A DNA stretch of 64,000 nt from Ricordea florida. Its lineage: Eukaryota; Cnidaria; Anthozoa; Corallimorpharia; Ricordeidae. Of this stretch, positions 24,241-64,000 are shown piece after piece. Made by a program: the position numbers and the translations under genes. The stretch is from NCBI GenBank assembly GCA_949710005.1, contig OX453284.1:4742001-4806000 (forward strand). Reading direction: 5' to 3'. The stretch's first letter is position 1, and each line of letters opens with the position of its first letter. Below the pieces are notes generated by a model. The model saw only the letters and a program-made list of their open reading frames with translations. It was not told the DNA's origin and did not search any database.

Positions 24241-25223
24241 AATCTTTCTTCCGCAGTTCACAAAAATGAAATTTTCATAGATTCACATTACTGAATAGTT
24301 TAGAAGCTGCTACTTTTATCGCCCTCCATATTTTCAATGTCACTGGCAAATGTGACGTTTTTGGCTTAATTCAGAAAGCTGTAAGTTTTTCCCCGCTGTT
24401 TTATTGTGGAGATCCAGCGAGCCTCTCATCCATAGCTAACCAGTTAAATTTCATTCTTAATTTACCATCTTTCACTAAAAGTTAATTTAACTTAATTTTT
24501 CAAGAAACAATTCTAAATGACGAGTTCAAGCTCCCATGAAACCATAAGATATTAATCGTTAAACAAAATGATGAGTAGAATCGGGCAATTTTTTAATACA
24601 AAATTTCTCTTGTGTTGCTAATGCTTTACCTTGATTAACGATCTTTCGCAGTTTTCTAACCAGCGTTTCCAAATCCTTGTTGCCTTGCCGGGAGGGCTGT
24701 AAGTAGAAACCAGCACGCGTTAAATCACTTACAATTTGAATCTGAACATGAATCTCCGAATCATCCACCCCTCCCTCAATAAAAAGTGCTGATGACTTAC
24801 TCTAAACAGGACACCTACGACAGCTAGTCCATCCGGTTTGTCCACCGCAGCTTCAAAACTTTGGTATTTTGTATTATAAAACACAAAATGGACCTATGGA
24901 ACATAGAAGTACGGCGTTGTAGAGAGTTATAGCCTATTTAGCATATTTATTTAAGCGCTAATTTTGCGCCATACAGTAAGCTACTGAACAGTACTGTGCT
25001 GTGATTCAATAGTGAGGTGTAATCACCTCCGCAGGTAGGGATCTTCCATTGAAAGTGTGCTCGGATCCCTGAAGTTTGTCACAGCCAAAGTGAAAGTGGA
25101 ACTGTTGAAGCCTAAATACTTTTTCCCCGACAGGACCCCCGGTTAGGATGGTAGCTTCTTGTGCCTCATCAATATTCAGAGTCGGAGAGTGGCCATTATA
25201 TTGGTTAAAATGCCTGAAATGGG

Positions 25224-25283
25224 ACCACCACCACCACCACCACCACCACCACCACCACCACCACCACCACCACCACCACCACC
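25224..25283 (+). repeat. (ACC)n microsatellite
   Basis: Twenty perfect ACC/CAC triplets. In one frame it reads as a poly-histidine run, but the surrounding frame shows no gene. Confidence 0.95.
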
Positions 25284-25860
25284 AAAACGTACTCGCAGCG
25301 GATTGTAGTAAACAAAAAATAGTTACATTTGACGACTTAGCTTATACTGACTTCCGATTTAACTTAGTTTTTATAATTAATTTTATTTACTGAGGTGAGA
25401 ACCGAATCGCATAACCAAACCACAGTTCAAATAAGATCAAAGTTTGCGTATAGCTGAGTTAAAGTGAGAGTGGTCTTACATTTAAAGTGGTTTGTTTAAC
25501 ACTGTGGGCCTGTTATCACTGGAATGTATTCGCAGTTATTATTTGTGCAGTAAAAAAAATTAAAGTGCTAATGATGAGACATTTTTTACCATGTAAAACC
25601 GTTTAAATTAAGATATCTTTGCACTCATTTAAGTATTTGTGCAGTGTATGTATTAAGTGTTTGTTATGATGTCAATAAAAAAAAATGTTAAAGTAAGAGC
25701 CAAATAGAATACCATCTTCCATTTTATTCTAATATTCATTAACGTTTCACTCGTAAACTATATTGGTTTAATTTGTTGTCGTGGGTGTGTTTCATGCGTT
25801 TCTTCTTGATCGTGTGATGAACCGCGTATTTGTTGCACTAAACGTTACTTCGTCTTTCAG

Positions 25861-29187: not shown

Positions 29188-30179
29188 TCACTCAAGAAAT
29201 ACTGATTCGACTTGAGTGCTTCTCCATTGTTTCAGAACGAACTCCGTTCGCTTTCTTTGTTTTTCCAGTTGAAACAACTTTGAATTTCTTCTGTGGCGGC
29301 TGGAGAGAAAAGAAAGGCAAATAAGACAAAAGCTTACAATGTTCGTTTAATTTACCATACGAATTGTACACAGAGTAATTTTGTTCTATAAGACACTATT
29401 TAGGTTTCTAAACAGAATTCGGCTTTTATTGTGAGCAGCTATTGGTTAAGGCAAAGCGACCATTTATAAGCTATAGAAAACTAGAGGATGTACTAATACT
29501 GATGTATAAAATGAAACAGAATTTCACCTAGCTACCTATGCGACCTTTTCAGCCTAAATAATAATAATTATAATTTAAGAATATCCGATTTTGACTGTTC
29601 CCTCTGGTGCAATCTCAGTGGCAGTGAAAGAGCTAAATGAAGGTCAATTTTTAAGCACTGTGTTGACCGTTATACTGATCATGTAATTTGCACCAGGTGT
29701 CACTAATTATGTACCAAACACAGCATAACAAATAAAATAATGGGGACTACGCTGATATAAAAAATAAAATATAAAATAAAATATAAAAGCATTGTGACTT
29801 CTTCAAAAACTAGCTTCGCGAGGTTTTTGCGGGAGTCGTATTTCTAGTAATAATTATAATTTAAGAATATCCGATTTTGACTTGCCAAGTTTTAAAACAG
29901 TCAGGTTTGGAAAACATTCGATTAGATATTAGGGACCACATCTATGGGCGAAATTATCCAAGAAAAAAAAAATTGGGGGAATCGTCGTCGTTAGCTATTT
30001 TTAAAAGATATTGTGGGGGTAGTTTCTAAAGAAACTGGTCCTGAGTCGGTGGGGAATTGAAACACAAGAAATTGGGATAATCAAAACCGCAACCGGTTAG
30101 CTCAGTGGGTAGAGCACCGGACTACCGTGCGGGAGGTCGTGGGTTCAAATCCTCGACCGGACCAACACTCAGGGTCTTT

Positions 30180-30212
<33 letters not shown>

Positions 30213-30524
30213 GACATCTCCAAATGGTAAGACTTTCTAGTCTTCTCCGATAAGGACGATAAACGTAGGTCCCGTCTCACAGTACTGGTGTGGGACGTTA
30301 AAGAACCCACACACTGTTCGGAAAGAGTAGGGGACGTAGTCCCCGGTGTGATGGTCTATCACTTATTCTGTTATGGGGGCACCTGTGTATCCTACTATTC
30401 ACTCTGATAAGATTGTGAACTGCGTGGCTGCAATTTGCGCCTTAATAAGCAGTCTGACAAAGTCCCCCACAAAAAGTGTTGTAAAGCGCTTTGAGCCTTG
30501 GGATAAAGCGCTATATAAATCCTG

Positions 30525-30564
<40 letters not shown>

Positions 30565-32083
30565 GAAGTTGATAAATTTGTACCACCGCAAGGTAAACGA
30601 AAATGAGCGGTATGCTAATTTTGCTCAAGCTAGATCCACGAAGATGTTGTTAACCAGATATTGATTAGCTTAGAGAATGTTGACAGAGATTTCAAGATTT
30701 CTTACTGTACTCACCGAAGAAGAACAGAGGCAATAACTATGATTATCACAATGACCGCAATAGACACACCAATGACTATCCATCGTATTCGCGCCATTGA
30801 ATTCAAACGCTCATTGGATGTCGGACTTTGGACATCTACTTCGTGATATGCTCGGATGTTTGAAATGCGCTTGTTGATCTCGGATGAAAACCTATTTTCA
30901 GATTGTCTTAAGGCTGCCAGCAATGCACCTCGAGACATGATTATCGTTTCTTTTGTACGAGAATAGAATATCACATAAAACGCCACTACAATGTCTCCTT
31001 TGTGTTTCTTTGGGTAGCCTTCAATTATCTGTGTCCTCGCAAAGACGTTGGTCCAGCTGAAAAGACTGAAAAATGTGTGTTTTTATTAATTGTATAATTC
31101 AGTCAATTACAAACGAAACTCTATTCATTGCCCAGTTTTCTTGTAAGTATAAAAATGTAACACTACTATTAAGTAGCCTCTACTAATACGCGGCTTTCAT
31201 CATCGTTTTGGCCGCCCCAAAAAGAATTTGGCAAGATTCCGCACAGGTCCCTACTTCATTATGCATGCAGCAGATGAATTGGGGATGATTTCCGCACAGG
31301 TCCCTACTTCATTATGCATGCTGTAGTTGAATTGTCTTCGGAAGTGCGCGTGCAGACATTTCTTGTACGGTTACAGCATGCATAATAAAGTAGGGACCTG
31401 TGCGGAAATGATTCCATGAATTGTTTAGGGTAATGCACATTGTTAAGGATTATTTTCTGTTCCTTTTTTATTAACTTTCTAAAAGAACGTTTGTGAAGAC
31501 CGAACTAGAAGTAATGTTACACGTAAGAGCGAATCGGAAGTTATGCAACACGTGCGAAGTGATCGACAGTTCAAAAATAAAAGTCCCCGGATTTTGGGGA
31601 GAAGCTCTTACGCCATCAGAAAAAATTTTTTTGGTTATTTTGTATCTTTTACGGGACTTTCAATGGGAACTCTGGACTTTGTTTGGAATTGACTTGGAAA
31701 GAAAAATTTAGGAACCTAAGGAGAAACACACATGTAAACATTTCTTGTTATTGCAGAATGGAACAGTATGGCTACAGCATGCATAATGAAGTAGGGACCT
31801 GTGCGGAAATCATTCCAAGAATTTTACAACTGTTTTCACCTGTATCAATCAGCCAACATGAAAGCCTTCGTTAAGCTCAAGATACATTATTATTGGAATG
31901 CTGATATCGCTGCAAAATTATTTTGGCATCAAGGGGTAGAAGCCAGCTCTCGTTAAAAAGTTGCTCCACATACCTTTTCCCGATTTTCATATTAGCACAG
32001 TCAGTATTTCTGTTAACTTGGCAATACTGCACTGCAATCTGGGATAGTACCGTCTTGAAAGATTTGTCAAGTCCACCAGTCCA
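29188..32083 (-). CDS. SEA-like region, transmembrane helix and cytoplasmic tail
   Basis: Preceded by a Thr-rich linker exon 32407-32534 ([18 protein letters not shown]). Exon 31974-32083 ([20 protein letters not shown]) and exon 30715-31056 ([20 protein letters not shown]) together look like a SEA-type juxtamembrane domain. This is followed by [20 protein letters not shown] as a single transmembrane helix. The last exon, 29188-29299, gives a 38-residue basic tail that starts RHRRNSKLF and ends ESVFLE-stop. Phases 0-2, 2-2 and 2 agree. No GSVVV-type SEA cleavage site was seen. The tail has no obvious signalling motif beyond clustered Arg/Lys. Confidence 0.8.
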
Positions 32084-35000
32084 CTAAGAATAAAAATTGA
32101 CGAAGAGAAATTATTACAGCTTGCAGTACTGATTTATAAAATAATCCTTTTCGGAGACGCAATTGCTTCTTTCAAACCCCACATTCCTTTAACCTTAAGA
32201 GAGAGTGAAAAAGTACAATCTAATTTCTACGAATTTACAATATTTCGCCACACTTTCCAAATATCTAACTGTTCTAGCTAATTATAAAATAGTTTTCCTT
32301 GAAAAACTTTCTTGGACCGTTCCTTATACAACCCTGTAAATTACCCCTTACATGAATTAGTACGAACAACCACACAACCATATATAGAACCTGCGTACAA
32401 ACTTACCTCATACAAGTCAGTGTCCTGGATGGTCAAGACGACCACATTATCCTTCTCTACAGAGGGTATCCCATCAGTCCCTGGGAGTGTTGAAGGTGTT
32501 ATTGTAGATGTTTCAACCGTCGTCTGAGGAACTTCTGACAAAAAAAAATAAATAAAACATTTAAATTCATCAATTGCATAGGACATCAGAAAAGGGATTT
32601 CACTGGAAGATTGGTTCCCAACTGTTGTGCATATATGTTCAAAGTATAAGACGATTTTTTATTTATATTATTTCCTCTTTACTGTTCTGTGCTTTTTTTC
32701 AAAATGAGTAATAAGTAGAGACAGACCCTGACACGTGTCAGCGACTCGACGATATCCCTGCTGGCACTGACAGTAGAACGACCCTGGCGTGTTCATGCAC
32801 AGCTCCAATGGGTCTTTACAGAACAACGTATCAACCAGTGAACACTCATCAATATCTGAAAAAAAAAACCATGCAACGCTAGTTATTTCTGTTATATAAT
32901 TCTGCGCCGAGAAATAATTTTGAATTCCGGAAGTGTCTTGTACCTTCACAAGTGAAGTTATCGGCTGTAAGTTTGTACCCAGATCGACACGAACATGTGT
33001 AGCTGCCTTTGACGTTGTTGCACAACTGTGAACATTTATGTCTCTGTGTTGTGCATTCGTTAACATCTGTTGAGAAAAAGACATGTTAAGCAACACCTTT
33101 GCCAGGAAAATTTGAAACAAGTGAAATTTCCACAGTGCCGTTTTGTACCGTTGGGAAGAAGGAGAGGACACAGAGAAAAATATATCAAATAACAGACACA
33201 GTGTTTCATCACGTACCAAACACGGAGAAGAGGGTAGAAAATACGACGAGTGGCGGATTTTTTCGTCAGCATTCAAAGTGTTTGATGCTGAAACCAAATT
33301 AATTGTTAGTCGCTTCACTCACCAGCACAAGTTTTGTTGTCCTCTTTTATTTGGAATCCTTTCCAGCAAGAACATTTGGGGTTGTCTTTGTACTCGTAAC
33401 AAACCTGCTCACACCCTGCATCTGACACATTGCACCGCGAAATAGCTGTGAATTACGAGAAAACAAAGTTTCTAATATGTTGATAATATGGTAATAATAT
33501 GACGATAACAAATTTTATTATATCTCTCAGTTAGTACGCGCGCTGTGATTGATCAATTTAGCGGGCCGTACTTCACTGTACGGCCCGCTTAAGTTTGTTT
33601 TGGTCGCCAAAATGACTCCAGAGATATAATAAATATCTTATTAACCTCGTTTTCTCGCTCCGTACTGTAAAATACGGATCCTCGTTTTTTCCCGTCGATT
33701 TATGGCCCAAGCGCGAAGCGTGCGGGCCATAAATCGACGAGAAAAAACTCGGTCCGTATTTTACAGTACGGACCTCGAACTCGATTAATAAGAGATATGT
33801 ATTTCAGGAATTAAAGAACGACTAACTAGCCTTGTATCGCGAGAAAGCACAGTCTTTTTGGTAAAAATATGACGGTAACAATTGGAATTGTAGTTCAAGT
33901 GGCATTTCTCAGCAGCGTGAATCAATTGTGTTCCTACTGGGACCCATTTGTCACTGGCAGTAAAAGGATCTAAACTCGTGAATGCGGTACATTCGTAATC
34001 AAAAGAACTGAAACGATGTTTGCATGCACAAGCTAAGCGGTAAGATTTCCGCACAGGTCCCTACTCATTATGCATTCTGTAACTATACTATTTCGTTCTT
34101 CGAACACAAGAAAAATTTGCACGTGCATTACACCAGACAAGACAGCTTCAGCATGCATAATGAAGTAGGGACCCGTACGGAAATCTTGCCCAGGTCCCTA
34201 CTTCATTATGCATGCTGTAGCCGTACGGTTTCGTTCTCAGAAATGTTTGCACGCGCACTTCCCAAGACAATTCAACTACAGCATGCATAATGAGTGGGGA
34301 CCTGTGCGGAAATCTTACCAGCTAAGCTGTGATTTTTTAAGAAGCTACTGCATGATAAACGACAAGTTTTATTGCATATTTTGAATTTCATCCTACGGGA
34401 CCACACATAGACTGAGGTACTTACGAATACAGGCGGTTTCATCCGTTGGGTCAACTGTGAAACCCTCGAAACAAGAACAGTTTCGTCCTCCAGGATAATT
34501 GGTACATTTATGCATACAATCATTCGCCAGAGCACACTCGTTGACATCTAAAGAAAAATGTGTGAGTGTTGTTAGCGCGACGACGTCCTCTGATGAAAAT
34601 AAGACTCCGAGGTTTTCCTTCAAACTTTCTTTGACTGGAGAACTTACTCGAAAAACTTGCAGGCTTTTTCTTACACGTTGCGCTTTTTGTAAGACACATG
34701 GTCACATTCCAACATGACCACGTGCTAACTCCCAGGTGTTTGTCCACTGACGCTGTGTATGCTGACTTTTGGAATATTATTTGCATACGTAATATGGAAA
34801 TCATCGCGATAGTATTTTGTCCATCCGACACTGCTTCATTTTTACCTTAAGACATTTGCAATAATCGATTTGCAAATATCAGACCAAATAGGACTTGCTT
34901 TAACCAAGAAGCTCTATATATTTAAATACTGGTACTCTGTTATGGAAAAGATTGTTATTCATCGTGGTAACGTCAATGATAATATAAATTAGTTCTATGG

Positions 35001-38000
35001 TCTCATGACGGAGTCGCTTGGGTGGTGGTCGCGACGTTTCGACTGCTTACTGCTAGTCTTCTTCAGGCGATATGCATTCTATCTTTGTATTCTATCAAAA
35101 AACTCTATAGGACCTTTAACGATGGATTTTGATATTTGGAAAACAGCAGGAATAGGGCAGAAAACTGGCTCATCTCACCTCTACAGCTGGTCCAATCACT
35201 GTCAAGTTTGTATCCATGGTAACAGCTACATGTAAATGACCCAGGGGAGTTGATACATTGTTGGCTACATCCAGATGTGTTGCTATGACACTCATCAATG
35301 TCTACACAAAAAAATTGGCAATATGAATGTCTCGACGTAAATGGCAAGGAGAACTCAGTTCTTGATCTCAAGCTCCTATCTTGTCTCAAGTCAACTGATA
35401 GTTCATTGCGCGGAATCGAATATTTTGAAAGAGCAAAGACGCGCGGCCAGTTCTTTTTCTCCAATCAGACGATCGCGCGTGTGCACTGGATTCTTATTAC
35501 CCAATAAAATGTTACACCGCATTCTATCTACATTCTCCAATCAAACGCTAGCAAGCACATTTACTTCTTATTGTCCAATCAAATGCTACCGCGCAATCGG
35601 TTTGTATTCTCCAATCAAACATTAGCACGTACGTGCGTTCAATCAGTATCCTCCAATGAAATGCTCATGCGTCTGCGTTAAAATTTTACTCTCGAATCAA
35701 ATGCTTGCGCGCACTTCACTCTAGTTGTCCAATAAAAAGCTAGTTAGTCACCAATCAGAGAACAAGCCATGCACTCAATTAGGTTATTAACCAATCAAAA
35801 ACTATAGCGCTTGAACTTAATTGTTGTTTCCAATGTCTCGTACCTTGGTCTATTGTTAATTTTAATAATTGGTTAGCAACATTTCTAACAACATTTGAAG
35901 GCTCTAAGACAGGGAGGACTCTTTCTCTTATCCCGTATTATTGCTTACTAATTTTTCTCTGGAGTTACACTGCGCAGTACCGAGTTACATGTAAAAGGAA
36001 AAGAAAATTTTCTTACCATCACATATAGCTCCATCGCCGCTGTAGCCGCTAGGACAGGGGCCGCATTTATACCCCGTAATATCTGCGGGTGGGGGCAAAT
36101 CAATACAGTCTACACCAGGAAAACAGGGATTGCTGTTCTCTGTACACGCCTCCAGGTTGCTTTCACAGAACTGTCCCGTAAGTCCCGCGAGACACGCGCA
36201 AGACAGCAAAATGAACCTGGTGCCGCTGTCCCGCTGTAGTTGGACTTCTTCGTCCTCCACGCAGCTGCCGCCATTTTGACACGGGCACAGCCTGATCAGG
36301 GGGCGGAGCTCTGATGATGAGTTTTTGTTATCAGTAGCGATGAAAACTGGCTCAACCTGAAAAAGCAGTGAGGCAAATGGGATACATTTAGCACCACTGA
36401 TCATTGTTATCTCCCACAAAGTTCACTTCATAAACTTGGGTGTATATGATTGACCACTAAACATTACAAATTCTTGGCGTTTACAGGTACAGGCTTTTTA
36501 CAGTGCGATGATTTGCATACCAATCCATTTCCTTACTTACCTCGTATCTCTTAGTAATCATGTTGTAAAAATGAAATAGCATTATTATGTTCTGTTGTAG
36601 CAGAAACCAGTATATTAGACCTGAGATACTATTTAAGGCTTTGTACTGACTTTAAAGATACTGGTTTTAATTTTAGATAAAACCATGCAGTGTGCCCATT
36701 CTTTGTAAAGCTACTGAACAGTACTGTACTGTGGTACTGTTTGTTTTACTATACAGTGTGGTTCTAACCTTTTCATCTGTGGATCAAACCATGCAGTGTG
36801 ATCATTCTTTGTAAAGCTACTGAACAGTACTGTACTGTGGTACTGTTTGTTTCACTATACAGTGTGGTTCTAACCTTTTCATCTGTGGATCAAACCATGC
36901 AGTGTAACCATTCTTTGTAAAGCTACTGAACAGTACTGTACTGTGGTACTGTTTGTTTTACTATACAGTGTGGTTCTAACCTTTTCATCTGTGGATCAAA
37001 CCATGCAGTGTGATCATTCTTTGTAAAGCTACTGAACAGTACTGTACTGTGGTACTGTTTGTTTTACTATACAGTGTGGTTCTAACCTTTTCATCTGTGG
37101 ATCAAACCATGCAGTGTGACCATTCTTTGTAAAGCTACTGAACAGTACTGTACTGTGGTACTGTTTGTTTTACTACACAGTGTGGTTCTAACTTTTTCAT
37201 CTGTGGATCAAACCAGGCAGTGTAACCATTCTTTGTAAAGCTACTGAACAGTACATTAACTGTACTGTGTTTCTTTTGATGTTTCTATACAGTGTGGTCT
37301 TAATGTTCTCACCTGTGGATCAAACCAAGCAGTGTGACCATTCTTTGGAAAGCTAGAGAATAGTACTGTGGAAGTACAGTTTTTTTGTATAGGGTAGATC
37401 CAACTCTTCCATTTGCAGTGTGACCATAATATTTGTGCAATTTTTAGCCCAACTAACCTTAACAAGAGAAGATGGTTTCCATCGGACTATCAGGTTTTGT
37501 GAAGTATTCAATACCACTGCATCATTTGGAATATCTTCCACAGAAAACACGACAGCTTCGCTGGAGCTCTGTTCCGCTGTGACGTTAACTTCTACTGTCT
37601 GATTAATAGTCGCGTTGATGACGCTTGGGCCTTTGATATCAGGCGGGAAATGAGCTACGAAGGCAAGAAACAGGAACGAAATATAATGCTGTAATAATAA
37701 GATGAAGGGAAACAGAATACAGATTGTAAAATGATCAAGATGGTATATGTTGAGCCCAGAACATTTGTGAACGATCTATCAGTTTTCGGCCATCTTAATT
37801 ATTTCAGGCCTTTTCACTTAGAGTATGCAGGATGTTTGTCCGATGAATCTAGTTTAATGGCCTTTCTCCCACGAGTCTCCTATAGCTCAGTGGTAGAGCG
37901 TCCAACTGACTAGTAATGAAGTCAGTAATGGGGAGGTCGTAAGTTCATCTGCTATTGAATGACCTCGGATTTGCTTTTCCCAAGTTTGCCTGACACAATG

Positions 38001-56000: not shown

Positions 56001-59000
56001 ATAACTTTATGAACTTCTTTTATTATCCCAATTTCTTGTATTTCAATTCCCCACCGACGTAGCACCAGTTTCTTTAGAAACTACCCCAACAATAAATAAG
56101 TCAAAAGACAGGGGACTCCCCTTAGTAAGAATTCAGCCCTATGCGAGGTCTTTGCTCCTTCTATTGTAGTACTTGAAAGTTATATACGTAGGCAGAAACC
56201 CATAAGAGCTAGAACGCGTAAGTACCTCGACTCTGAATGTCTTCAACCACAGCCTATCCACATTCAATCTACCAAGTACCAAATTTGGAAAGCACTAGAA
56301 ACCTAATGAACCTATGAAACTGGCTTTAGTTGTGTGAGGTACTTACTGCGAGATACGCGCCTCTACTCAAAATATGGCGGACACGTCGTTGTTGCAAATG
56401 CTAGTAGTTTCCGACGCGTCATGGAAGCAGGACAGTACCAACAAGCTTAAAGACTGGGGAAAGTAGTTTCCAAATATGGTACTTGAGAAATATCGATTCT
56501 GGACAAGCTGAGAACGCGCGTTACACGTTTCAAGTCTTACGGTTCTCCAGTTGTGTCGAGGCCGGAATAGCACTGAGCTAGAACCCATAAGGAAAGTCCT
56601 CCTTATAGATTTACAAAACCTTTCCTTTTTATACTCCACCTTTAAAAAAGACATATCTCACTTTCCATTGTTAAAACGAAAAAGTCTCCTATTTCTTGAA
56701 AGAACTTTCGTTAAAAAATGGCACCATTCAACATACGAACACTGCATGCCTTCTTGACTTTTTGAGATGAGAATATCGAGCGATAGCAGAGAAGAAAAAA
56801 ACATAGCCAAAAGAAATTACCTAAAACATAACTTACAATCTAACAAAAACGCTCTCTACCTTTGCTTTCAAAGGACGATAAAATCACCGTAAAATAGAGG
56901 TAAGACCGAGCTTTCAAACCTCTGTCTGGGCATGGACACCAAGCGAATAGGTCAATCTACAAAGCATTCCGCGGCCATAAAACAAACGATACCGAAGATC
57001 TATTTTAAACCAAAATTAGATGTTCAATACTCAAAGAACTAATTAGCAAGGAACCAGCTACATAAGTAAGAAAATCCTAATATTTGCTTTCGATGATCTT
57101 TTCTTCTCAAAAATAATTTTCGTACAACCATCGTGAAAGTAGTCAAACCCTAATGACGTTTTACCTGGCTGTGAACTCAGTGGTGTTGTATCTGGCTGTG
57201 TAGTTGGTGTCGTATCTGGCTGTGTAGTTGGTGCCGTTGTATTTGGCTGTGTAGTTGGTGCTGTTGTATTTGGCTGTGTAGTTGGTGCCGTTGTATTTGG
57301 CTGTGTAGTTGGTGCCGTTGTATTTGGTTGTGTAGTTGGTGCCGTTGTATCTGGCTGTGTAGTTGGTGCCGTTGTATCTGGCTGTGTAGTTGGTGCCGTT
57401 GTATTTGGCTGTGTAGTTGGTGCCGTTGTATTTGGCAGTGTAGTTGGTGCCGTTGCATCTGGCTGTGTAGTTGGTGCCGTTGTATTTGGCTGTGTAGTTG
57501 GTGCCGTTGTATTTGGAAGTGTAGTTGGTGCCGTTGCATCTGGCTGTGTAGTTGGTGCCGTTGTATTTGGCTGTGTAGTTAGTACCGTTGTATTTGGCTG
57601 TGTAGTTGGAACCGTTGTATTTGGCTGTGTAGTTGGTACCGTTGTATTTGGCTGTGTAGTTGGTGGCGTTGTATTTGGCTGTGTAGTTGCTGCGGTTCTA
57701 TCTGCCTGTGTAGTTGGTGCCGTTGTATTTGGCTGTGTAGTTGGTGTTGTTGTATTTGGCTGTGTACTTGGTGCAGTTGTATTTGGCTGTGTCGTTGGTG
57801 CCGTTGTATTTGGCTGTGCAGTTGGTGCCGTTGTATTTGGCTGTGTAGTTGGTGGCGTTGTATTTGGCTGTGTAGTTGCTGCGGTTCTATCTGCCTGTGT
57901 AGTTGGTGCCGTTGTATTTGGCTGTGTAGTTGGTGTTGTTGTATTTGGCTGTGTACTTGGTGCAGTTGTATTTGGCTGTGTCGTTGGTGCCGTTGTATTT
58001 GGCTGTGCAGTTGGTGCCGTTGTATTTGGCTGTGTAGTTGGTGCCGTTGTATTTGGCTGTGCACCTGGTACCGTTGTATTTGGCTGTGTAGTTGGTGCCG
58101 TTGTATCTGGCTGTGCAGTTGGTGCCGTTGTATTTGGCTGTGCAGTTGGTTCCGTTGTATTTGGCTGTGTAGTTGGTGCCGTTGTATCTGGCTGTGTAGT
58201 TGGTGCAGTTGTATTTGGCTGTGTGGTTGGTGCCGTTGTATTTGGCTGTGCAGTTGGTGCCGTTGTATTTGGCTGTGCAGTTGGTGCCGTTGTATTTGGC
58301 TGTGTAGTTGGTGCCGTTGTATCTGGCTGTGTAGTTGGTGCTGTTGTATTTGGCTGTGTAGTTGGTGCCGTTGTATTTGGCTGTGTAGTTGGTGCCGTTG
58401 TATTTGACTGTGTAGTTGGTGCTGTTGTATTTGGCTGTGTAGTTGGCGCCGTTGTATCTGGCTGTGTAGTTGGTGCCGTTGTATCTGGCTGTGTAGTTGG
58501 TGCCGTTGTATTTGGCTGTGTAGTTGGTGCCGTTGTATTCGGCTGTGTAGTTGGTGCCGTTGTATCTGGCTGTGTAGTTGGTGCCGTTGTATTTGGCTGT
58601 GTAGTTGATGCAGTTGTATTTGGATGTGTAGTTGGTGCCGTTGTATTTGGCTGTGTAGTTGGCGCTGTTGTACCTTGCTGTGTAGTTGGTTCCGTTGTAT
58701 CTGGCTGTGTAGTAGTAGGAGGCGGTGGAGCTGAAACAAATGGAAGACGATTGTGGTTAATGCCAAGACTGCGAGTATTTTAGCTGTTGTCGCCTACAAG
58801 TAACCCCAGTTATGTGATCACGTGACACTATGTTTCACTTCGTAATCTTGAGTTTTAGTCGTGGGGAAAAGTAATTGAATTGTGTAAAGCATTACATTTT
58901 ATACGATCATGCATTTCTATGGATTTCAGTATTTGACATCGACTTGCGCTGTGATTTTTCTCCTCTGCCAGAACTAAGAAGTGTAACTCTTTATTGCGTG

Positions 59001-62000
59001 GGAATGATTAATACCTATTACTCTAACCGAGTTCGAGGTCCTTACGGTAAGTTACAGACCGAGTTTTTTCCGCTCGGATTTATGGCCGTAACGGATAAAA
59101 TGAGGAAAAAACACAACCCTACCATTTTTCATCAGCTTGACATTCATAATGTGGGAACCCAGAGCTCATCTGCTAGCTGTACCATGCTGATGAGGCCTGA
59201 TAAGGCCAAAACAGCTGTCCATGGCTGCTGGCCTTTGAGCTCAATTTTTTCATCTTTTCTTTGGTAGCAACAGGGTTTTATCCCTTCTACCACTGTCGCC
59301 TCAGTGCGCACATGGGTTGCTTTAACACACCCTTACTACATTTTGACGCTGTCATTTTAAGCCACATTCCATAACCCTACCATTTTTCATCACCTTGACA
59401 TTAATAATGTGGGAACCCAGAGCTGTACCATAATGATGAGGCCTAACAAGGCCGAAACAGCTGTCCATGGCTGCTGGCTTTTGAGCTTAATTTTTCATCT
59501 TTTTTTGGTAGCAGTAGGGTTTTATCCTTTCTACCACTGTCGCCTCGGTGGGCATATGTGTGACTTTAACATACCCTTACTTCATTTTGATGCTGTCATT
59601 TCAAGCCACATCCCATAACCCTACCATTTTTCATCACCGTATAGTGAAATACGACCCGCTAATTTGAATAATAACAGCGCGTGTCCCAACCTACGGATAT
59701 AATAAAGCTGGTTATTGAGGGCATTACTATAATGTATACCTGTAGGTAACGGTCGTGGTACGTTCTTTAGGAACTCAATTTGGCCTCCAAGGTTTCCCCT
59801 TGGTTGGTAACGTGCGACAATGTAATGAATGTTTGGTCCAGTGGCCACACCCACCCCCAACTGACCAGATGCTCGCCATACAACCTGCGTAAAATGACGC
59901 CATTGCTGGTTTTGATCGATAGGGCCTCCTGTGCCAAAGTTGTAATTCGATATCTCGTTGTACCAAGAAGTCACTACTGCTCTGCACTCTAGACAATTCA
60001 CATGTGAAGGGTCTGTACACAGAGGTCTTGCTGGAAAGAACTGGAAAACAGCAATGTTTTCGCCGGAGGTTTGTACAGTGCTGTTGTCGTGTTGTACTGT
60101 TCCATTTTGCAGGAGGAACTGGGACCAGTTCCTGGCAGCATCAGCAAGATTGGGGCTCCAAACCAAATTGGGAACACTGTGGCGCGCACGGAATACATTA
60201 TGGGAATCCAGACAATCTTGCTCAAAGTAGGAAGGAACTGAAAGGTAGAGAAGTCAATATAAATGTTTAGTGTACTGCTGTGTTGCAGGACGACACAGCA
60301 CCTAGAAAGTTATCATCATAATTATTCACAGTCTAATTAAGAGCTTTCCACATAGTTGGATCAAACTAAAGAACCAAAATCCTATACGTTTAGTTTGTCC
60401 TATCAATGGATTATTTAAAGAATTGAATGTGTTTCAGCAGTGTGGAAGGTCTACCGTAAATCCAAAGAAATTTTTAGTTCTTGGTCAGAGCTCTGACGAA
60501 AGGCTAACCCTCGGAACGTCAGCATTCTCTTTCTATCTTACGGTGGTACAAATAACTTTATGAACTTCTTTTATTATCCCAATTTCTTGTATTTCAATTC
60601 CCCACCGACGTAGCACCAGTTTCTTTAGACACTACCCCAACAATAAATAAGTCAAAAGACAGGGGACTCCCCTTAGTAAGAATTCAGCCCTATGCGAGGT
60701 CTTTGCTCCTTCTATTGTAGTACTTGAAAGTTATATACGTAGGCAGAAACCCATAAGAGCTAGAACGCGTAAGTACCTCGACTCTGAATGTCTTCAACCA
60801 CAGCCTATCCACATTCAATCTACCAAGTACCAAATTTGGAAAGCACTAGAAACCTAATGAACCTATGAAACTGGCTTTAGTTGTGTGAGGTACTTACTGC
60901 GAGATACGCGCCTCTACTCAAAATATGGCGGACACGTCGTTGTTGCAAATGCTAGTAGTTTCCGACGCGTCATGGAAGCACGACAGTACCAACAAGCTCA
61001 AAGACTGGGGAAAGTAGTTTAGAAATATGGTACTTGAGAAATATCGATTCTGGACAAGCTGAGAACGCGTGTTACACGTTTCAAGTCTTACGGTTCTCCA
61101 GTTGTGTCGAGGCCGGAATAGCACTGAGCTAGAACCCATAAGGAAAGTCCTCCTTATAGATTTACAAAACCTTTCCTTTTTATACTCCACCTTTAAAAAA
61201 GACATATCTCACTTTCCATTGTTAAAACGAAAAAGTCTCCTATTTCTTGAAAGAACTTTCGTTAAAAAATGGCACCATTCAACATACGAACACTGCATGC
61301 CTTCTTGACTTTTTGAGATGAGAATATCGAGCGATAGCAGAGAAGAAAAAAACATAGCCAAAAGAAATTACCTAAAACATAACTTACAATCTAACAAAAA
61401 CGCTCTCTACCTTTGCTTTCAAAGGACGATAAAATCACCGTAAAATAGAGGTAAGACCGAGCTTTCAAACCTCTGTCTGGGCATGGACACCAAGCGAATA
61501 GGTCAATCTACAAAGCATTCCGCGGCCATAAAACAAACGATACCGAAGATCTATTTTAAACCAAAATTAGATGTTCAATACTCAAAGAACTAATTAGCAA
61601 GGAACCAGCTACATAAGTAAGAAAATACTAATATTTGCTTTCGATGATCTTTTCTTCTCAAAAATAATTTTCGTACAACCATCGTGAAAGTAGTCAAACC
61701 CTAATGACGTTTTACCTGGCTGTGAACTCAGTGGTGTTGTATCTGGCTGTGTAGTTGGTGTCGTATCTGGCTGTGTAGTTGGTGCCGTTGTATTTGGCTG
61801 TGTAGTTGGTGCTGTTGTAATTGGCTGTGTAGTTGGTGCCGTTGTATTTGGCTGTGCAGTTGGTGCCGTTGTATTTGGTTGTGTAGTTGGTGCCGTTGTA
61901 TCTGGCTGTGTAGTTGGTGCCGTTGTATCTGGCTGTGTAGTTGGTGCCGTTGTATTTGGCTGTGTAGTTGGTGCCGTTGTATTTGGCAGTGTAGTTGGTG

Positions 62001-64000
62001 CCGTTGCATCTGGCTGTGTAGTTGGTGCCGTTGTATTTGGCTGTGTAGTTGGTGCCGTTGTATTTGGCTGTGTAGTTGGTGCCGTTGCATCTGGCTGTGT
62101 AGTTGGTGCCGTTGTATTTGGCTGTGTAGTTAGTACCGTTGTATTTGGCTGTGTAGTTGGAACCGTTGTATTTGGCTGTGTAGTTGGTACCGTTGTATTT
62201 GGCTGTGTAGTTGGTGGCGTTGTATTTGGCTGTGTAGTTGCTGCGGTTCTATCTGCCTGTGTAGTTGGTGCCGTTGTATTTGGCTGTGTAGTTGGTGTTG
62301 TTGTATTTGGCTGTGTACTTGGTGCAGTTGTATTTGGCTGTGTCGTTGGTGCAGTTGTATTTGGCTGTGCAGTTGGTGCCGTTGTATTTGGCTGTGTAGT
62401 TGGTGCCGTTGTATTTGGCTGTGCAGTTGGTACCGTTGTATTTGGCTGTGTAGTTGGTGCCGTTGTATCTGGCTGTGTAGTTGGTGCCGTTGTATTTGAC
62501 TGTGTAGTTGGTGCTGTTGTATTTGGCTGTGTAGTTGACGCCGTTGTATTTGGCTGTGTAGTTGGTGCCGTTGTATCTGGCTGTGTAGTTGGTGCCGTTG
62601 TATTTGGCTGTGTAGTTGGTGCCGTTGTATTTGGCTGTGTAGTTGGTGCCGTTGTATCTGGCTGTGTAGTTGGTGCCGTTGTATTTGGCTGTGTAGTTGA
62701 TGCAGTTGTATTTGGATGTGTAGTTGGTGCCGTTGTATTTGGCTGTGTAGTTGGCGCTGTTGTACCTGGCTGTGTAGTTGGTTCCGTTGTATCTGGCTGT
62801 GTAGTAGTAGGAGGCGGTGGAGCTGAAACAAATGGAAGACGATTGTGGTTAATGCCAAGACTGCGAGTATTTTAGCTGTTGTCGCCTACAAGTAACCCCA
62901 GTTATGTGATCACGTGACACTATGTTTCACTTCGTAATCTTGAGTTTTAGTCGTGCGGAAAAGTAATTGAATTGTGTAAAGCATTACATTTTATACGATC
63001 ATGCATTTCTATGGATTTCAGTATTTGACATCGACTTGCGCATTGATTTTTCTCCTCTGCCAGAACTAAGAAGTGTAACTCTTTATTGCGTGGGAATGAT
63101 TAATACCTATTACTCTAACCGAGTTCGAGGTCCTTACGGTAAGTTACAGACCGAGTTTTTTCCGCTCGGATTTATGGCCGTAACGGATAAAATGAGGAAA
63201 AAACACAACCCTACCATTTTTCATCAGCTTGACATTCATAATGTGGGAACCCAGAGCTCATCTGCTAGCTGTACCATGCTGATGAGGCCTGATAAGGCCA
63301 AAACAGCTGTCCATGGCTGCTGGCCTTTGAGCTCAATTTTTTCATCTTTTCTTTGGTAGCAACAGGGTTTTATCCCTTCTACCACTGTCGCCTCAGTGCG
63401 CACATGGGTTGCTTTAACACACCCTTACTACATTTTGACGCTGTCATTTCAAGCCACATTCCATAACCCTACCATTTTTCATCACCTTGACATTAATAAT
63501 GTGGGAACCCAGAGCTGTACCATAATGATGAGGCCTAACAAGGCCGAAACAGCTGTCCATGGCTGCTGGCTTTTGAGCTTAATTTTTCATCTTTTTTTGG
63601 TAGCAGTAGGGTTTTATCCTTTCTACCACTGTCGCCTCGGTGGGCATATGTGTGACTTTAACATACCCTTACTTCATTTTGATGCTGTCATTTCAAGCCA
63701 CATCCCATAACCCTACCATTTTTCATCACCGTATAGTGAAATACGACCCGCTAATTTGAATAATAACAGCGCGTGTCCCAACCTACGGATATAATAAAGC
63801 TGGTTATTGAGGGCATTACGATAATGTATACCTGTAGGTAACGGTCGTGGTACGTTCTTTAGGAACTCAATTTGGCCTCCAAGGTTTCCCCTTGGTTGGT
63901 AACGTGCGACAATGTAATGAATGTTTGGTCCAGTGGCCACACCCACCCCCAACTGACCAGATGCTCGCCATACAACCTGCGTAAAATGACGCCATTGCTG
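29188..64000 (-). CDS. Giant CAP-mucin-TSP1-NIDO-AMOP-VWD-EGF membrane protein, 5' incomplete
   Basis: Thirty-eight exons totalling about 10.6 kb of coding sequence (about 3,540 codons) chain with matching phases and GT/AG borders. They run from the window edge to a TGA at 29188. Exons not listed in the domain entries are 37458-37654 and 32407-32534. N to C: three CAP + Thr/Pro-array units, a short unknown module, 11 TSP1, NIDO, AMOP, VWD, Cys-rich segment, linker, EGF-like domains, SEA-like region, transmembrane helix, short basic tail. NIDO-AMOP-VWD-EGF-TM is the order known from MUC4, SUSD2-type proteins and coral mucin-like skeletal matrix proteins. Fusion to CAP domains, mucin arrays and TSP1 repeats is the unusual part. 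The signal peptide and start lie beyond the window. It is predicted to be a very large, heavily glycosylated cell-surface or shed extracellular protein. Splitting into two genes cannot be excluded without transcripts, but no stop, poly(A) site or phase break separates the halves. Confidence 0.8.
29562..29882 (+). repeat. 35-bp direct repeats flanking a 250-bp insert
   Basis: The 35-base sequence beginning TAATAATTATAATTTAAGAA is present at 29562-29596 and, with no mismatch seen, at 29848-29882. The intervening segment has no coding content. It lies in the last intron of the mucin-like gene and resembles an insertion with an unusually long target duplication. Confidence 0.75.
30087..30562 (+). 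mobile_element. tRNA-derived SINE with (ATC)n tail
   Basis: Head ACCGGTTAGCTCAGTGGGTA with B box GTGGGTTCAAATCCTCGAC. The central part includes GACGATAAACGTAGGTCCCG and GGGACGTTAAAGAACCCAC, a block widely conserved in animal SINEs. The tail GTAAAGCGCTTTGAG and GCGCTATATAAATC is followed by (ATC)n at about 30525-30562. The anticodon stem is broken, so this is a SINE and not a tRNA gene. It lies in the last intron of the mucin-like gene. Confidence 0.75.
31222..31830. mobile_element. MITE family with CCGCACAGGTCCCTACTTC termini
   Basis: The motif CCGCACAGGTCCCTACTTCA followed by TTATGCATGC occurs at about 31235 and 31289. Its reverse complement, GCATGCATAATAAAGTAGGG with ACCTGTGCGG, occurs at about 31378 and again near 31778. 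These form terminal inverted repeats around short AT-rich centres. A further cluster of four half-elements lies at 34040-34320. Confidence 0.65.
32727..36356 (-). CDS. EGF-like domain exons
   Basis: Exon 36017-36356 holds two EGF-like units ([29 protein letters not shown]). Then come single-domain exons, all phase 1-1: 35179-35301 ([16 protein letters not shown]), 34425-34547 ([15 protein letters not shown]), 33323-33445 ([15 protein letters not shown]), 32944-33066 ([16 protein letters not shown]), 32727-32855 ([15 protein letters not shown]). Four are 123 bp and the last is 129 bp. The D-[IV]-[DN]-E-C start marks calcium-binding EGF domains. The 33323-33445 unit lacks it (PISRCN). An exon at 37458-37654 upstream encodes a Val/Ser/Thr-rich linker ([20 protein letters not shown]) with N-glycosylation sequons. 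Confidence 0.88.
33514..33796 (-). mobile_element. MITE, inverted relative of 13931-14142, with nested hairpin
   Basis: Contains CAGTTAGTACGCGCGCTGTG at the left and CGAACTCGATTAATAAGAGA at the right, the reverse order of the 13931 copy. The centre carries an extra hairpin, CGTCGATTTATGGCCC against GGGCCATAAATCGACG, absent from the other copy. It lies in an EGF-region intron. Confidence 0.7.
34040..34320. repeat. Cluster of MITE half-elements
   Basis: Four copies of the GGTCCCTAC..CATTATGCAT motif in alternating orientation, separated by 50-100 bases with related centres (GTACGGTTTCGTTCTCAGAA and similar). This suggests nested or serial insertion of the 31222-type MITE next to the EGF exon at 34425-34547. 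Confidence 0.6.
35455..35830 (+). repeat. CCAATCA-rich degenerate tandem array
   Basis: About nine units of roughly 40-60 bases, each with CCAATCAAA or CCAATCAGA followed by a GCxxGCGC-type segment (for example CTCCAATCAAACGCTAGCAA). It lies in the intron between two EGF-containing exons. Confidence 0.65.
36679..37400 (+). repeat. 106-bp satellite array in intron
   Basis: Six to seven head-to-tail units with period 106-107 bases. The core is AACCATGCAGTGTGACCATT, then AAAGCTACTGAACAGTACTG and TACTGTGGTACTGTTTG. The last units near the right edge are more diverged. Each unit contains the inverted pair AACAGTAC / GTACTGTT. The same unit occurs in two other introns of this gene. Confidence 0.85.
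37870..37950 (+). mobile_element. Degenerate tRNA-like sequence
   Basis: TATAGCTCAGTGGTAGAGCG is a good A box and GGTCGTAAGTTCATCTG a poor B box, with an extended, unpaired anticodon region. It is most likely a SINE head or tRNA pseudogene. Confidence 0.4.
38023..39443 (-). CDS. VWD domain and following Cys-rich segment
   Basis: Exons 39225-39443, 38395-38727 and 38023-38277, all phase 1-1. The first begins [20 protein letters not shown], the classic VWD opening. The second has [19 protein letters not shown], the calcium-site loop of VWD domains. The third reads [13 protein letters not shown], then [15 protein letters not shown], a segment that regularly follows VWD in SUSD2/MUC4-like proteins. 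GDPH has been linked to autocatalytic cleavage in MUC2/MUC4; the aspartate and proline are present (WGDPHF). Confidence 0.9.
39630..40520 (+). repeat. 106-bp satellite, scattered units
   Basis: About six diverged units of the 36679-37400 satellite (near 39645, 39905, 39985, 40160, 40265, 40370 and a partial one near 40480), interrupted by unrelated sequence. They lie in the intron between the AMOP exon and the first VWD exon. Confidence 0.75.
40666..41180 (-). CDS. AMOP domain exon
   Basis: 515 nt, phase 2 to 1. It begins with the end of NIDO (GVWFFRLD), then [20 protein letters not shown] starts the AMOP domain. Cysteines continue through [35 protein letters not shown] and [14 protein letters not shown] is a cysteine-rich domain of adhesion-associated MUC4- and SUSD2-type proteins. 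The run of Arg at the C-terminal end (RRRRR) could be a protease cleavage site (inference). Confidence 0.9.
41213..41420 (+). repeat. (TATCTA)n microsatellite
   Basis: Two runs of TATCTA/TCTATA hexamers (41213-41292 and about 41364-41420), separated by a 70-base unique segment. They lie between the NIDO and AMOP exons. Confidence 0.9.
41786..44708 (-). CDS. NIDO domain (four exons)
   Basis: Exons 44572-44708, 43307-43672, 42747-42847 and 41786-41881 (phases 1-0, 0-0, 0-2, 2-2). Diagnostic segments in order: [69 protein letters not shown] and AGYNAGDK. They match the extracellular nidogen-like (NIDO) domain found N-terminal to AMOP in MUC4-type proteins. The 366-nt exon carries an insertion-like stretch ([19 protein letters not shown]) typical of the family. 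Confidence 0.88.
42088..42131. repeat. AT-rich perfect hairpin
   Basis: ATATTTACTAAAAAAAATTA followed by its near reverse complement ending TTTTTTAGTAAATAT. It lies in a NIDO-region intron, and the function is unknown. Confidence 0.7.
42370..42545 (-). mobile_element. tRNA(Thr)-like SINE, minus strand
   Basis: On the minus strand: GGCAGCGTGGTCGAGTGGTT (A box), then CCGGACTTGTAATCTGG, an anticodon arm with TGT, then GTTCAATTCCCGTCC (B box). Acceptor strands do not pair and an unrelated body follows, so it is a SINE and not a working tRNA gene. Confidence 0.6.
44225..44525 (-). mobile_element. tRNA-derived SINE, minus strand
   Basis: Reverse-strand relative of the 18705-18995 SINE, with GGTTAGCGTGTCAGGCTTCC, GCAGTTCGAGTCCTTGTGAT, GTGTATAATTGGGTACCATA and CATACTCCCAGGTGCTTCAT. 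It ends about 50 bases before the NIDO exon at 44572-44708. Confidence 0.65.
44951..45133. repeat. Long near-perfect palindrome
   Basis: The left arm begins AGGTATCTTATATACAAGGC. The right arm ends with the complement, GCCTTGTATATAAGATACC. The arms are about 75-80 bases with few mismatches and include AAACCAAACGTTTTCGGCT. The loop is (GAT)n-like. A 180-base foldback, probably a MITE, in the intron between TSP1 repeat 11 and NIDO. Confidence 0.85.
45429..51769 (-). CDS. Eleven thrombospondin type-1 repeat exons
   Basis: Exons, in protein order: 51599-51769, 50711-50881, 49636-49806, 48865-49035, 48272-48442, 47786-47956, 47337-47507, 47066-47236, 46670-46840, 46107-46277, 45429-45599. Every exon is 171 bp, phase 1-1, one 57-residue TSP1 domain each. 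Typical features are [28 protein letters not shown] and six cysteines ending in CPG. The first Trp lies in DGNFxxWG, and the WxxW pair fits C-mannosylation. Repeats 5 and 7 are close relatives, as are 6 and 8, so a two-exon block was duplicated. TSP1 arrays bind glycosaminoglycans and matrix proteins in other animals and are common in coral skeletal matrix proteins. Confidence 0.93.
45741..45855. mobile_element. Foldback MITE with AGGGACGGACCATTAG termini
   Basis: AGGGACGGACCATTAGAAAA at the left and its reverse complement TTTTCTAATGGTCCGTCCCT at the right. Inner arms GGGGAGGGGGGTGGGGAA and TTCCCCACCCCCCCC flank a short A-rich loop. It lies between TSP1 repeats 10 and 11. Confidence 0.8.
46440..46640 (+). 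repeat. 106-bp satellite, two units in TSP1 intron
   Basis: Two diverged units of the same satellite (CTACTGAGCAGTACTGTATT, then CCATGCAGTGTGACCATTAT), directly downstream in transcript sense of TSP1 exon 46670-46840. Confidence 0.75.
48118..48185. mobile_element. Short inverted-repeat element
   Basis: CGCAGCTGTTCTTAG and CTAAGAACAGCTGC flank a 27-base centre with GTCTCGTCACGAAACGCTCC. It is a small MITE-like hairpin in the intron between TSP1 repeats 5 and 6. Confidence 0.6.
49850..50690. other. TSP1 intron with unclassified repeats
   Basis: Contains several copies of CCCTATTTATGACxTGACC near 49900-50000. It also holds an AT-rich block with GTATATAAGAAACG near 50260, which could be promoter-like LTR sequence. 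No coding domain was seen. Confidence 0.35.
52264..52436 (+). repeat. (GATA)n/(CATA)n compound microsatellite
   Basis: TAGA/GATA tetramers, then about 30 CATA tetramers with two GGTAGA interruptions, then GATA again. Open frames here (MYVC repeats) are artefacts. It lies in the intron between the unrecognised module and TSP1 repeat 1. Confidence 0.95.
52701..53564 (-). CDS. Unrecognised ~95-aa module (two exons)
   Basis: Exon 53479-53564 encodes [20 protein letters not shown] and QPPRNCSS, phase 0 to 2. Exon 52701-52900 encodes [20 protein letters not shown] followed by [20 protein letters not shown] and a hydrophobic [15 protein letters not shown], ending phase 1. With about 95 residues, three cysteines and alternating hydrophobic positions, it looks like a small folded alpha/beta domain at the junction of the mucin arrays and the TSP1 repeats. 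I cannot assign it to a family; a divergent SEA-like fold is only a guess. Confidence 0.7.
53682..54424 (-). CDS. Thr/Pro-rich mucin array exon, unit 1
   Basis: 743-nt exon starting with the shared leader [13 protein letters not shown], then about 23 TTQP[GDN]TT[AE]P units, then a unique end ([11 protein letters not shown], later [14 protein letters not shown]) at donor GAG|GTTTGC. Gly and Asp are more frequent at the variable position than in units 2 and 3, and several units have Glu for Ala. Phase changes from 1 to 0, linking to the next, non-repeated module. Confidence 0.82.
54695..55153. repeat. MITE relic with internal repeat in CAP-mucin intron
   Basis: CGAGTTCGAGGTCCTTACGG near 54719 and TAGTGAAATACGACCCGCTA ... 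CAGCGCGTG ... GATATAATAAA near 55090-55153 are diverged ends of the 13931-14142 MITE family. Between them lies one roughly 260-bp unit bounded by AACCCTACCATTTTTCATCA. The same intron in units 2 and 3 (58731-59739 and 62823-63831) has two such internal units. Confidence 0.6.
55189..55686 (-). CDS. CAP domain exon 1
   Basis: 498 nt, phase 1-1, acceptor CTTTCAG, donor ACAG|GTATAC. Full CAP domain with [40 protein letters not shown] and [11 protein letters not shown]. It joins upstream to mucin array unit 2 and downstream to mucin array unit 1 in the same phase, so the modules alternate. Confidence 0.9.
57165..58730 (-). CDS. Thr/Pro-rich mucin array exon, unit 2
   Basis: 1566-nt exon, phase 1-1, about 58 copies of the TTQPNTTAP unit. 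Same acceptor leader (APPPP) and same SSQPG end as unit 3. It contains an internal duplication of about 189 bp (seven units, 57661-57850 against 57850-58039) that unit 3 lacks. The total is 459 nt longer than unit 3, exactly 17 repeat units, and the reading frame is preserved. Confidence 0.85.
59740..60237 (-). CDS. CAP domain exon 2
   Basis: 498 nt, phase 1-1. One CAP/SCP (CRISP, antigen 5, PR-1) domain: [29 protein letters not shown] and [17 protein letters not shown] contain the His-Glu-Glu-His cavity residues. In the second family signature ([11 protein letters not shown]) the usual Cys is Ala. It differs from copy 1 at three residues that I can see (Thr for Ile, Ser for Ala, Asp for Gly). 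Roles of CAP domains vary (matrix, lipid binding, immunity); none can be fixed here. Confidence 0.9.
61716..62822 (-). CDS. Thr/Pro-rich mucin array exon, unit 3
   Basis: 1107-nt exon, acceptor TTTCAG|CTCCACC, phase 1 in and out, about 41 copies of a 9-residue unit with consensus TTQPNTTAP. Asn alternates with Asp and occasionally Gly. Thr makes up nearly half the residues, as in densely O-glycosylated mucin domains. NTT is also an N-glycosylation sequon. The correct frame has no ATG. Long open frames in other phases and on the plus strand here are by-products of the 27-bp periodicity. The exon ends SSQPG at the donor G|GTAAAA. Confidence 0.85.
63832..64000 (-). CDS. CAP domain exon 3 (cut by window edge)
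   Basis: C-terminal part of a CAP/SCP domain with the same donor (ACAG|GTATAC) and phase as the two complete copies. The visible residues, including [17 protein letters not shown], match copy 2. Confidence 0.85.

What the first reader, a model, noticed from the sequence alone, without database searches (positions are those of the whole stretch)
29188..64000. One giant mosaic gene: [CAP + mucin array]x3 - TSP1x11 - NIDO-AMOP-VWD-EGF-SEA-TM
All 38 visible exons join with matching phases and no stop. The C-terminal half is a MUC4/SUSD2 or coral mucin-like-protein module; the N-terminal half adds CAP domains alternating with Thr/Pro arrays and a thrombospondin array. I know of NIDO-AMOP-VWD-EGF proteins and of TSP1 proteins in coral skeletons, but not of this CAP-mucin extension. 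The protein would be a very large tethered glycoprotein combining potential lipid/protease-like CAP folds, glycan-dense spacers, GAG-binding TSP1s and calcium-binding EGFs. That suits mucus, skeletal matrix or microbe-contact roles.
Basis: partly seen in the sequence, partly recalled or inferred. Interest (0 to 1): 0.9.

Follow-up and report, generated by a model that had tools for sequence, protein, structure and literature searches.

The report
Coral surface mucin with CAP domains
A coral genome carries what appears to be one giant gene for a membrane-anchored, sugar-coated protein that joins CAP domains, thrombospondin repeats and a MUC4-like anchor; a predicted protein of another stony coral has the same plan, and it may link two proteins so far listed separately in coral skeletons.

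Summary
A rebuilt minus-strand gene has 38 exons, 64000 to 29188, no internal stop, at least 3,537 aa; its 5' end lies outside the window. Matching phases prove little: 27 of 37 introns are phase 1. Better evidence is a domain the finding did not name: three exons (54424-52701, phases 1-0-2-1) bridge mucin and TSP1 and encode an SEA-like domain related to the C-terminal one. An Oculina patagonica 'mucin-like protein, partial' (P0010, 2,989 aa) has the same plan, mucin-CAP-mucin-SEA-TSP1-...-NIDO-AMOP-VWD-EGF-SEA-TM (AMOP by alignment only). So one gene is the best reading, and the plan already exists as a database model, though 8 paper searches found no description. The TSP1-NIDO-AMOP-VWD-EGF part is the known coral mucin4-like skeletal protein (PMC4890752); CAP+TSP1 is known from red-coral skeleton (PMC7853314). 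The 'x3' is a very recent duplication (two introns each 99.5% identical between units) and may be an assembly effect. Likely mechanism, inferred: a tethered mucin cut at GDPH whose outer part carries CAP and TSP1 domains. New variant of a known kind.

The parts
63832..64000 (-). CAP domain a (3' part of its exon; rest outside window)
   Evidence: identical over 169 nt to CAP b
61716..62822 (-). mucin array a, 9-residue Thr/Pro repeat (369 aa, 155 Thr, 27 N-glycosylation sequons)
59740..60237 (-). CAP domain b (single exon, phase 1-1)
   Evidence: Pfam CAP 6.9e-19; best matches among solved structures Pry1 and GAPR-1
57165..58730 (-). mucin array b (522 aa, 217 Thr, 41 sequons)
55189..55686 (-). 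CAP domain c; 6 of 498 nt differ from CAP b
53682..54424 (-). mucin array c plus the start of SEA-like domain 1 (phase 1 in, 0 out; donor score only 3.3)
53479..53564 (-). SEA-like domain 1, middle exon (phase 0 in, 2 out)
   Evidence: homologous to P0002 and P0010
52701..52900 (-). SEA-like domain 1, last exon (phase 2 in, 1 out)
45429..51769 (-). 11 TSP1 exons of 171 bp each, all phase 1-1
   Evidence: Pfam on 4 of the 11; WxxWxxC found 11 times in the whole chain
41786..44708 (-). NIDO domain, 4 exons
   Evidence: Pfam NIDO 1.4e-30
40666..41180 (-). AMOP-like domain, 1 exon, ending in an RRRRR cluster
   Evidence: Pfam AMOP 4.9e-5, just under the curated cut-off
38395..39443 (-). VWD domain, 2 exons, starting with the GDPH motif
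   Evidence: Pfam VWD 1.4e-14; GDPH at residue 2659 of the model
38023..38277 (-). C8-3_MUC4 region
   Evidence: Pfam 3.5e-13
37458..37654 (-). linker stretch without Pfam match, inside the part that aligns with P0010 and P0014
32727..36356 (-). EGF-like domains, 6 exons (seven EGF counted by eye)
   Evidence: Pfam EGF_CA, cEGF
30715..32534 (-). SEA-like domain 2 (3 exons, internal phases 0 and 2 as in SEA-like 1) and transmembrane helix
   Evidence: helix read by eye
29188..29299 (-). cytoplasmic tail exon and stop codon
   Evidence: tail resembles that of P0010 by eye

Best explanation
One coral gene encodes a MUC4-type tethered mucin of at least 3,537 aa. Shown from sequence: CAP domains alternate with Thr/Pro arrays, then an SEA-like domain, 11 TSP1 repeats, NIDO, an AMOP-like domain, VWD, C8, EGF, a second SEA-like domain, a membrane helix and a short basic tail. 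Inferred: the chain is cut at GDPH in the VWD domain, as proposed for MUC4, leaving an EGF-bearing membrane subunit and a very long glycan-dense subunit that stays attached or is shed. The long subunit would act as an adhesive brush: TSP1 repeats hold sulphated glycans or other matrix, CAP domains bind divalent metal and lipid (or self-associate), mucin arrays space them. The likeliest setting is the surface facing skeleton or mucus; proteins with the TSP1-NIDO-AMOP-VWD-EGF part have been found in coral skeleton.
For: Open 38-exon model. Same order of domains in Oculina P0010 (AMOP there by alignment only); unbroken alignment through SEA-like 1 into TSP1 to P0010 (window residues 1499-1844 = 1339-1684, 54%) and P0002 (1499-1793 = 47-341, 56%). 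Core tree: window + P0010 + P0014 as one clade, SH-aLRT 100, among the 46 rows that covered more than 600 residues (quick mode). No signal-peptide-like start exon with a phase-1 donor in the introns between CAP and mucin units; the 10 hits in all introns are 9 in a simple repeat of the T1 intron and 1 in a VWD intron (own criteria, no positive control). GDPH in the window and in all 15 relatives picked out of the 74. The four residues of the CAP metal tetrad are identical to Pry1's, counted by hand on the alignment (tetrad from the abstract of PMC4921858). MUC4 cleavage at GDPH is called putative in PMC8660890 (passages).
Against: No transcript, protein or localisation data. P0010 and P0001 are themselves gene predictions, and in Oculina the multi-CAP part (P0001) and the NIDO part (P0010) are separate records, though both lie on a contig of the same length. 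Weak splice sites. AATAAA signals at 60575 and 56024 lie in the introns after mucin arrays a and b, ATTAAA at 52988 and 52456 after SEA-like 1 exons. CAP, TSP1 and cleavage functions are carried over from other proteins. PMC7115838 matches the S. pistillata skeletal Mucin-4 to the A. digitifera mucin4-like protein; if P0021 is that Mucin-4, it lies in another clade than the window gene, so skeletal location cannot simply be transferred.
Confidence: 0.6

Rival explanations
1. Two genes: a CAP-mucin gene ending near 52.6 kb, and a separate TSP1-MUC4-like gene starting near 51.8 kb.
For: The junction SEA-like 1 to TSP1 is phase 1 like most others, so it would fit by chance; the last SEA-like exon could read on to a stop at 52642; ATTAAA at 52456; Oculina P0001 is a separate CAP-rich record.
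Against: P0002 and P0010 run through the same junction in one chain; the only start-exon-like hits in the T1 intron are in a TATG simple repeat; P0010 has CAP and NIDO together.
Confidence: 0.13
2. The repeated CAP+mucin units are partly an assembly artefact: two haplotypes of one unit placed in tandem.
For: MUC-to-CAP introns differ at 7 of 1478 bases and CAP-to-MUC introns a and b at 5 of 1009, within the range of allelic difference in outbred animals (recalled).
Against: Mucin exons a, b and c differ in length (1107, 1566, 743 bp); unit c's CAP-to-MUC intron differs (764 against 1009 bp, 90-92% identity); Oculina P0001 also has three CAP domains.
Confidence: 0.25
3. Same protein, but its job is surface mucus and microbe contact rather than skeleton.
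For: MUC4 lines epithelia and helps lubrication and protection (PMC8660890 abstract); sea anemones, which build no skeleton, have mucin4-like genes (PMC9080433; P0029, P0036).
Against: Coral mucin4-like proteins with TSP1 are found in skeletal matrix; CAP+TSP1 and a mucin are both in red-coral skeleton.
Confidence: 0.4

Closest known systems
Oculina patagonica 'mucin-like protein, partial' (P0010)
   Same: mucin-CAP-mucin-SEA-TSP1-...-NIDO-AMOP-VWD-C8-EGF-SEA-TM in one chain; 56-57% identity over the C-terminal part
   Different: one CAP in the partial record, two CUB domains and an extra SEA-like domain between TSP1 repeats, five TSP1 instead of eleven; AMOP not listed by Pfam; a prediction, no description found in print
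Coral mucin4-like skeletal matrix protein (Acropora digitifera aug_v2a.09809; A. millepora B3EWY9)
   Same: TSP1 at the N-terminal side, NIDO, AMOP, VWD, EGF (PMC4890752 section 13)
   Different: sequences are fragments; no CAP or mucin extension mentioned in what I saw
Corallium rubrum CR_3-4 CAP-like skeletal protein
   Same: GAPR-1 type CAP followed by TSP1 (PMC7853314 section 13 and passages)
   Different: listed apart from the mucin CR_2; two TSP1, no NIDO-to-TM part mentioned
Human MUC4
   Same: tandem repeats, NIDO, AMOP, VWD with GDPH (PMC8660890 passages); EGF and TM recalled
   Different: no CAP or TSP1 (recalled)
Dendronephthya gigantea LOC114538021 (P0009)
   Same: CAP domains alternating with Pro/Thr-rich arrays
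   Different: ShK family instead, no TSP1 or NIDO in its Pfam list

Membership tests
MUC4-like / coral mucin4-like protein | NIDO domain | tested here: met
   Pfam 1.4e-30, 107 bits
MUC4-like / coral mucin4-like protein | AMOP domain | tested here: inconclusive
   exon alone 4.9e-5, 23.9 bits against cut-off 25; not listed at E up to 0.1 in the joined scan
MUC4-like / coral mucin4-like protein | VWD with GDPH, followed by C8-3_MUC4 | tested here: met
MUC4-like / coral mucin4-like protein | EGF-like domains and C-terminal membrane helix | tested here: met
   EGF by Pfam; helix and tail read by eye, aligned with P0010
MUC4-like / coral mucin4-like protein | TSP1 repeats before NIDO (coral form) | tested here: met
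   11 exons; Pfam on 4 of 11; 11 WxxWxxC in the chain
MUC4-like / coral mucin4-like protein | cleavage at GDPH | not testable with these tools
   motif only
MUC4-like / coral mucin4-like protein | presence in skeleton | not testable with these tools
   no proteomic data for this species
CAP superfamily | CAP profile match | tested here: met
   69.3 bits, cut-off 21.1, CAP b
CAP superfamily | His-Glu-Glu-His metal tetrad | tested here: met
   all four identical in the alignment of CAP b to Pry1, counted by hand; tetrad from PMC4921858 abstract
SEA domain | Pfam SEA profile match | tested here: not met
   no family matched for either domain at E up to 10; in the longer piece with the helix only sub-threshold DUF7201 (0.0087) and Collectrin (0.035)
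SEA domain | SEA-like (ferredoxin-like) fold | tested here: inconclusive
SEA domain | autocleavage motif GSVVV | tested here: not met
   read in the alignment: KGDIVVAF in domain 2, GPNLEVRF in domain 1; motif recalled

The most novel reading that the evidence does not exclude
Two protein families listed separately among the nine shared by octocoral and stony-coral skeletons, the CAP-like protein with TSP1 and the mucin, are ends of a single polypeptide in at least two stony corals: a CAP-bearing tethered mucin that physically links cell membrane, glycan brush and matrix, and whose CAP-mucin units are being amplified independently in each lineage.
Probability: 0.27. Interest if true: 0.65.

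Novelty: new variant of a known kind. Interest (0 to 1): 0.48.

Why it matters
If one transcript is confirmed, skeleton and mucus proteomes that list CAP-like and mucin-like proteins apart would need re-mapping to one gene, and corals would offer a membrane-anchored mucin that carries CAP domains at its outer end. It also gives a concrete locus for asking how CAP-mucin units multiply.

Tried and rejected
Phase matching as proof of one gene: rejected as weak, 27 of 37 introns being phase 1. Separate start exons between CAP units: scanned with my own criteria, none found, no positive control. SEA-like domains: no Pfam match; a sequence search of solved structures with domain 2 gave E 0.096 at best, to an unrelated enzyme; phmmer between the two SEA-like domains of the window gives only 0.013-0.014 within the pool of fetched proteins, against 4e-8 in a two-sequence BLASTP and strong scores with a profile that includes them. 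Weak KIAA1549 matches near the second SEA-like domain of P0010 (0.0014) and P0014 (0.024) were not followed. Foldseek on the P0002 model listed mainly TSP1-bearing structures; the model has mean pLDDT 52.3 from a 4-row alignment, so fold matches are weak support. CAP tree of 22 rows (CAP a of the window left out as partial): window CAPs fall beside the Oculina CAPs and Montipora P0007, support 85/97, fork drawn open, two long branches. Selection on CAP: 5 codons differ between b and c, 3 change the residue, too few to judge. Rest of the gene beyond 64000 and the window's own genome: not reached. Species of the window not determined; no near-identical protein was returned.

Full report
What is there. 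On the minus strand, 38 exons join from the window edge (64000) to a stop codon ending at 29188, with AG before and GT after the exons and no internal stop, giving 3,537 aa with the N-terminus missing. Sites were chosen by hand from score, domain continuity and open frame, so the open frame is partly by construction. Pfam finds CAP, TSP1, NIDO, VWD, C8-3_MUC4 and EGF and a just-sub-threshold AMOP in the exon alone. The Thr/Pro arrays are 9-residue repeats of the type APTTQPNTT; the exons of arrays a, b and c have 155, 217 and 94 Thr and 27, 41 and 7 N-glycosylation sequons (the third exon includes the start of the SEA-like domain). The chain has 11 WxxWxxC motifs, one for each TSP1 repeat, and all 11 repeats fit CxxS/TCxxG by eye; that these are C-mannose and O-fucose signals is recalled.

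Is it one gene? The phase argument is weak: 27 of 37 introns are phase 1, so many unrelated phase-1 pieces would fit. The stronger test is the mucin-to-TSP1 junction. There, three exons (54424-53682, 53564-53479, 52900-52701) with phases 1-0-2-1 encode a domain with the same internal phases (0 and 2) as the SEA-like domain next to the membrane, and related to it: BLASTP 4e-8 for the pair (one junction residue mistyped), phmmer only 0.013-0.014, a family profile 5.8e-27 and 9.8e-34 (the profile includes these sequences). Stylophora P0002 and Oculina P0010 align without a break through this domain into the TSP1 repeats. P0010 also carries mucin and CAP upstream and NIDO to TM downstream (its AMOP part by alignment only). 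The tail of the window gene, read in the frame that the phase demands, resembles that of P0010 by eye. No signal-peptide-like start exon was found in the introns between CAP and mucin units (no positive control). Against this, AATAAA occurs in the introns after arrays a and b and ATTAAA twice between 53.0 and 52.4 kb, and there is no transcript.

How common is it? Of 74 proteins returned for the NIDO-to-EGF part, 1 (P0010) lists CAP and 5 list the TSP1 family PF00090 (P0010, P0014 and amphioxus P0049, P0051, P0054) (only 7,991 candidates sharing most words were scored). Of 3 proteins returned for CAP+SEA-like 1 at full-length sizes, 1 (P0010) has NIDO. In a tree of 46 core sequences, those covering more than 600 residues, the window, P0010 and P0014 form one clade (SH-aLRT 100, quick mode), apart from two other cnidarian groups. 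CAP copies of Oculina lie close to each other and those of the window to each other, which suggests separate amplification or homogenisation in each lineage; the fork that joins them has support 85/97 and is drawn open.

The repeated unit. The MUC-to-CAP introns upstream of CAP b and CAP c are 99.5% identical (7 of 1478 differ), and the CAP-to-MUC introns of units a and b 99.5% (5 of 1009); CAP exons b and c differ at 6 of 498. The CAP-to-MUC intron of unit c is shorter and only 90-92% identical in its aligned pieces. This is a very young duplication. Such similarity is also what unmerged haplotypes would give, so I do not vouch for the number three. Oculina P0001 has three CAP domains, so multiple CAPs as such are credible.

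How it may work (inferred). GDPH opens the VWD domain in the window and in all 15 relatives that I picked out of the 74, preceded in the window by RRRRR. In human MUC4 the chain is said to be putatively cut there into a mucin subunit and a membrane subunit (PMC8660890 passages). The four metal-binding residues of CAP are kept (counted by hand). [quoted passage not shown] The SEA-like domains lack the GSVVV cleavage motif (motif recalled), so I expect them not to self-cleave. Together this suggests an adhesive, glycan-dense tether with CAP domains towards its outer end.

What is known. PMC4890752 (section 13 read) reports that coral mucin4-like skeletal proteins add TSP1 to NIDO-AMOP-VWD-EGF and that no other animal showed this; the amphioxus records above have TSP1 and NIDO in their domain lists, order unchecked. 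PMC7853314 (section 13 and passages) lists a CAP-like protein with two TSP1 and a mucin among nine families shared with stony-coral skeletons. PMC7115838 (passages) ties S. pistillata Mucin-4 to the A. digitifera protein; if it is P0021, it lies in a different clade from the window gene. Passages of PMC8162421 and PMC12549020 named no such protein. I found no paper describing CAP joined to NIDO-AMOP-VWD in 8 searches of the held library, which leaves out most subscription journals.

Judgement. The finding is real and well read. It is a CAP-bearing variant of the coral mucin4-like protein, with a close database relative of the same plan. The most interesting untested point is whether the CAP-like and mucin-like skeletal proteins are one molecule.

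Noticed in passing
window 11470-11832 (+), 18990-19247 (+), 23831-24037 (-), 25009-25341 (-), 26395-26823 (+): Exons or fragments of alpha carbonic anhydrase on both strands near the mucin gene (Pfam Carb_anhydrase); a carbonic anhydrase is also in the red-coral skeleton list.
   Followed up: partly
window 2717-3844 (+): Galactose-3-O-sulfotransferase-like reading frame (Pfam 8.1e-77), in the same neighbourhood as a mucin gene.
   Followed up: partly
window 17549-18025 (+): Reverse-transcriptase-associated zinc-binding fragment (zf-RVT 2.1e-06), a likely retroelement remnant; three other frames sent in that call (10943-11266, 15622-16209, 16940-17515) had no Pfam match.
   Followed up: partly
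window 36676-37369 and 40162-40535: What looks like the same 106-bp tandem repeat sits in two different introns of the gene.
   Followed up: no
window about 31230-31830 and 34020-34320: A repeated element around 'caggtccctacttcattatgcatgc', in both orientations, in two introns (seen by eye); perhaps a small mobile element.
   Followed up: no
window 30093-30160 (+): Weak tRNA match (29.9 bits, threshold 29) inside the last intron, perhaps a tRNA-derived repeat.
   Followed up: no
proteins P0049, P0051, P0054: Amphioxus MUC4-like proteins list TSP1, NIDO and SEA families together, although PMC4890752 reports the coral TSP1-mucin4 plan in no other metazoan; domain order not checked.
   Followed up: no
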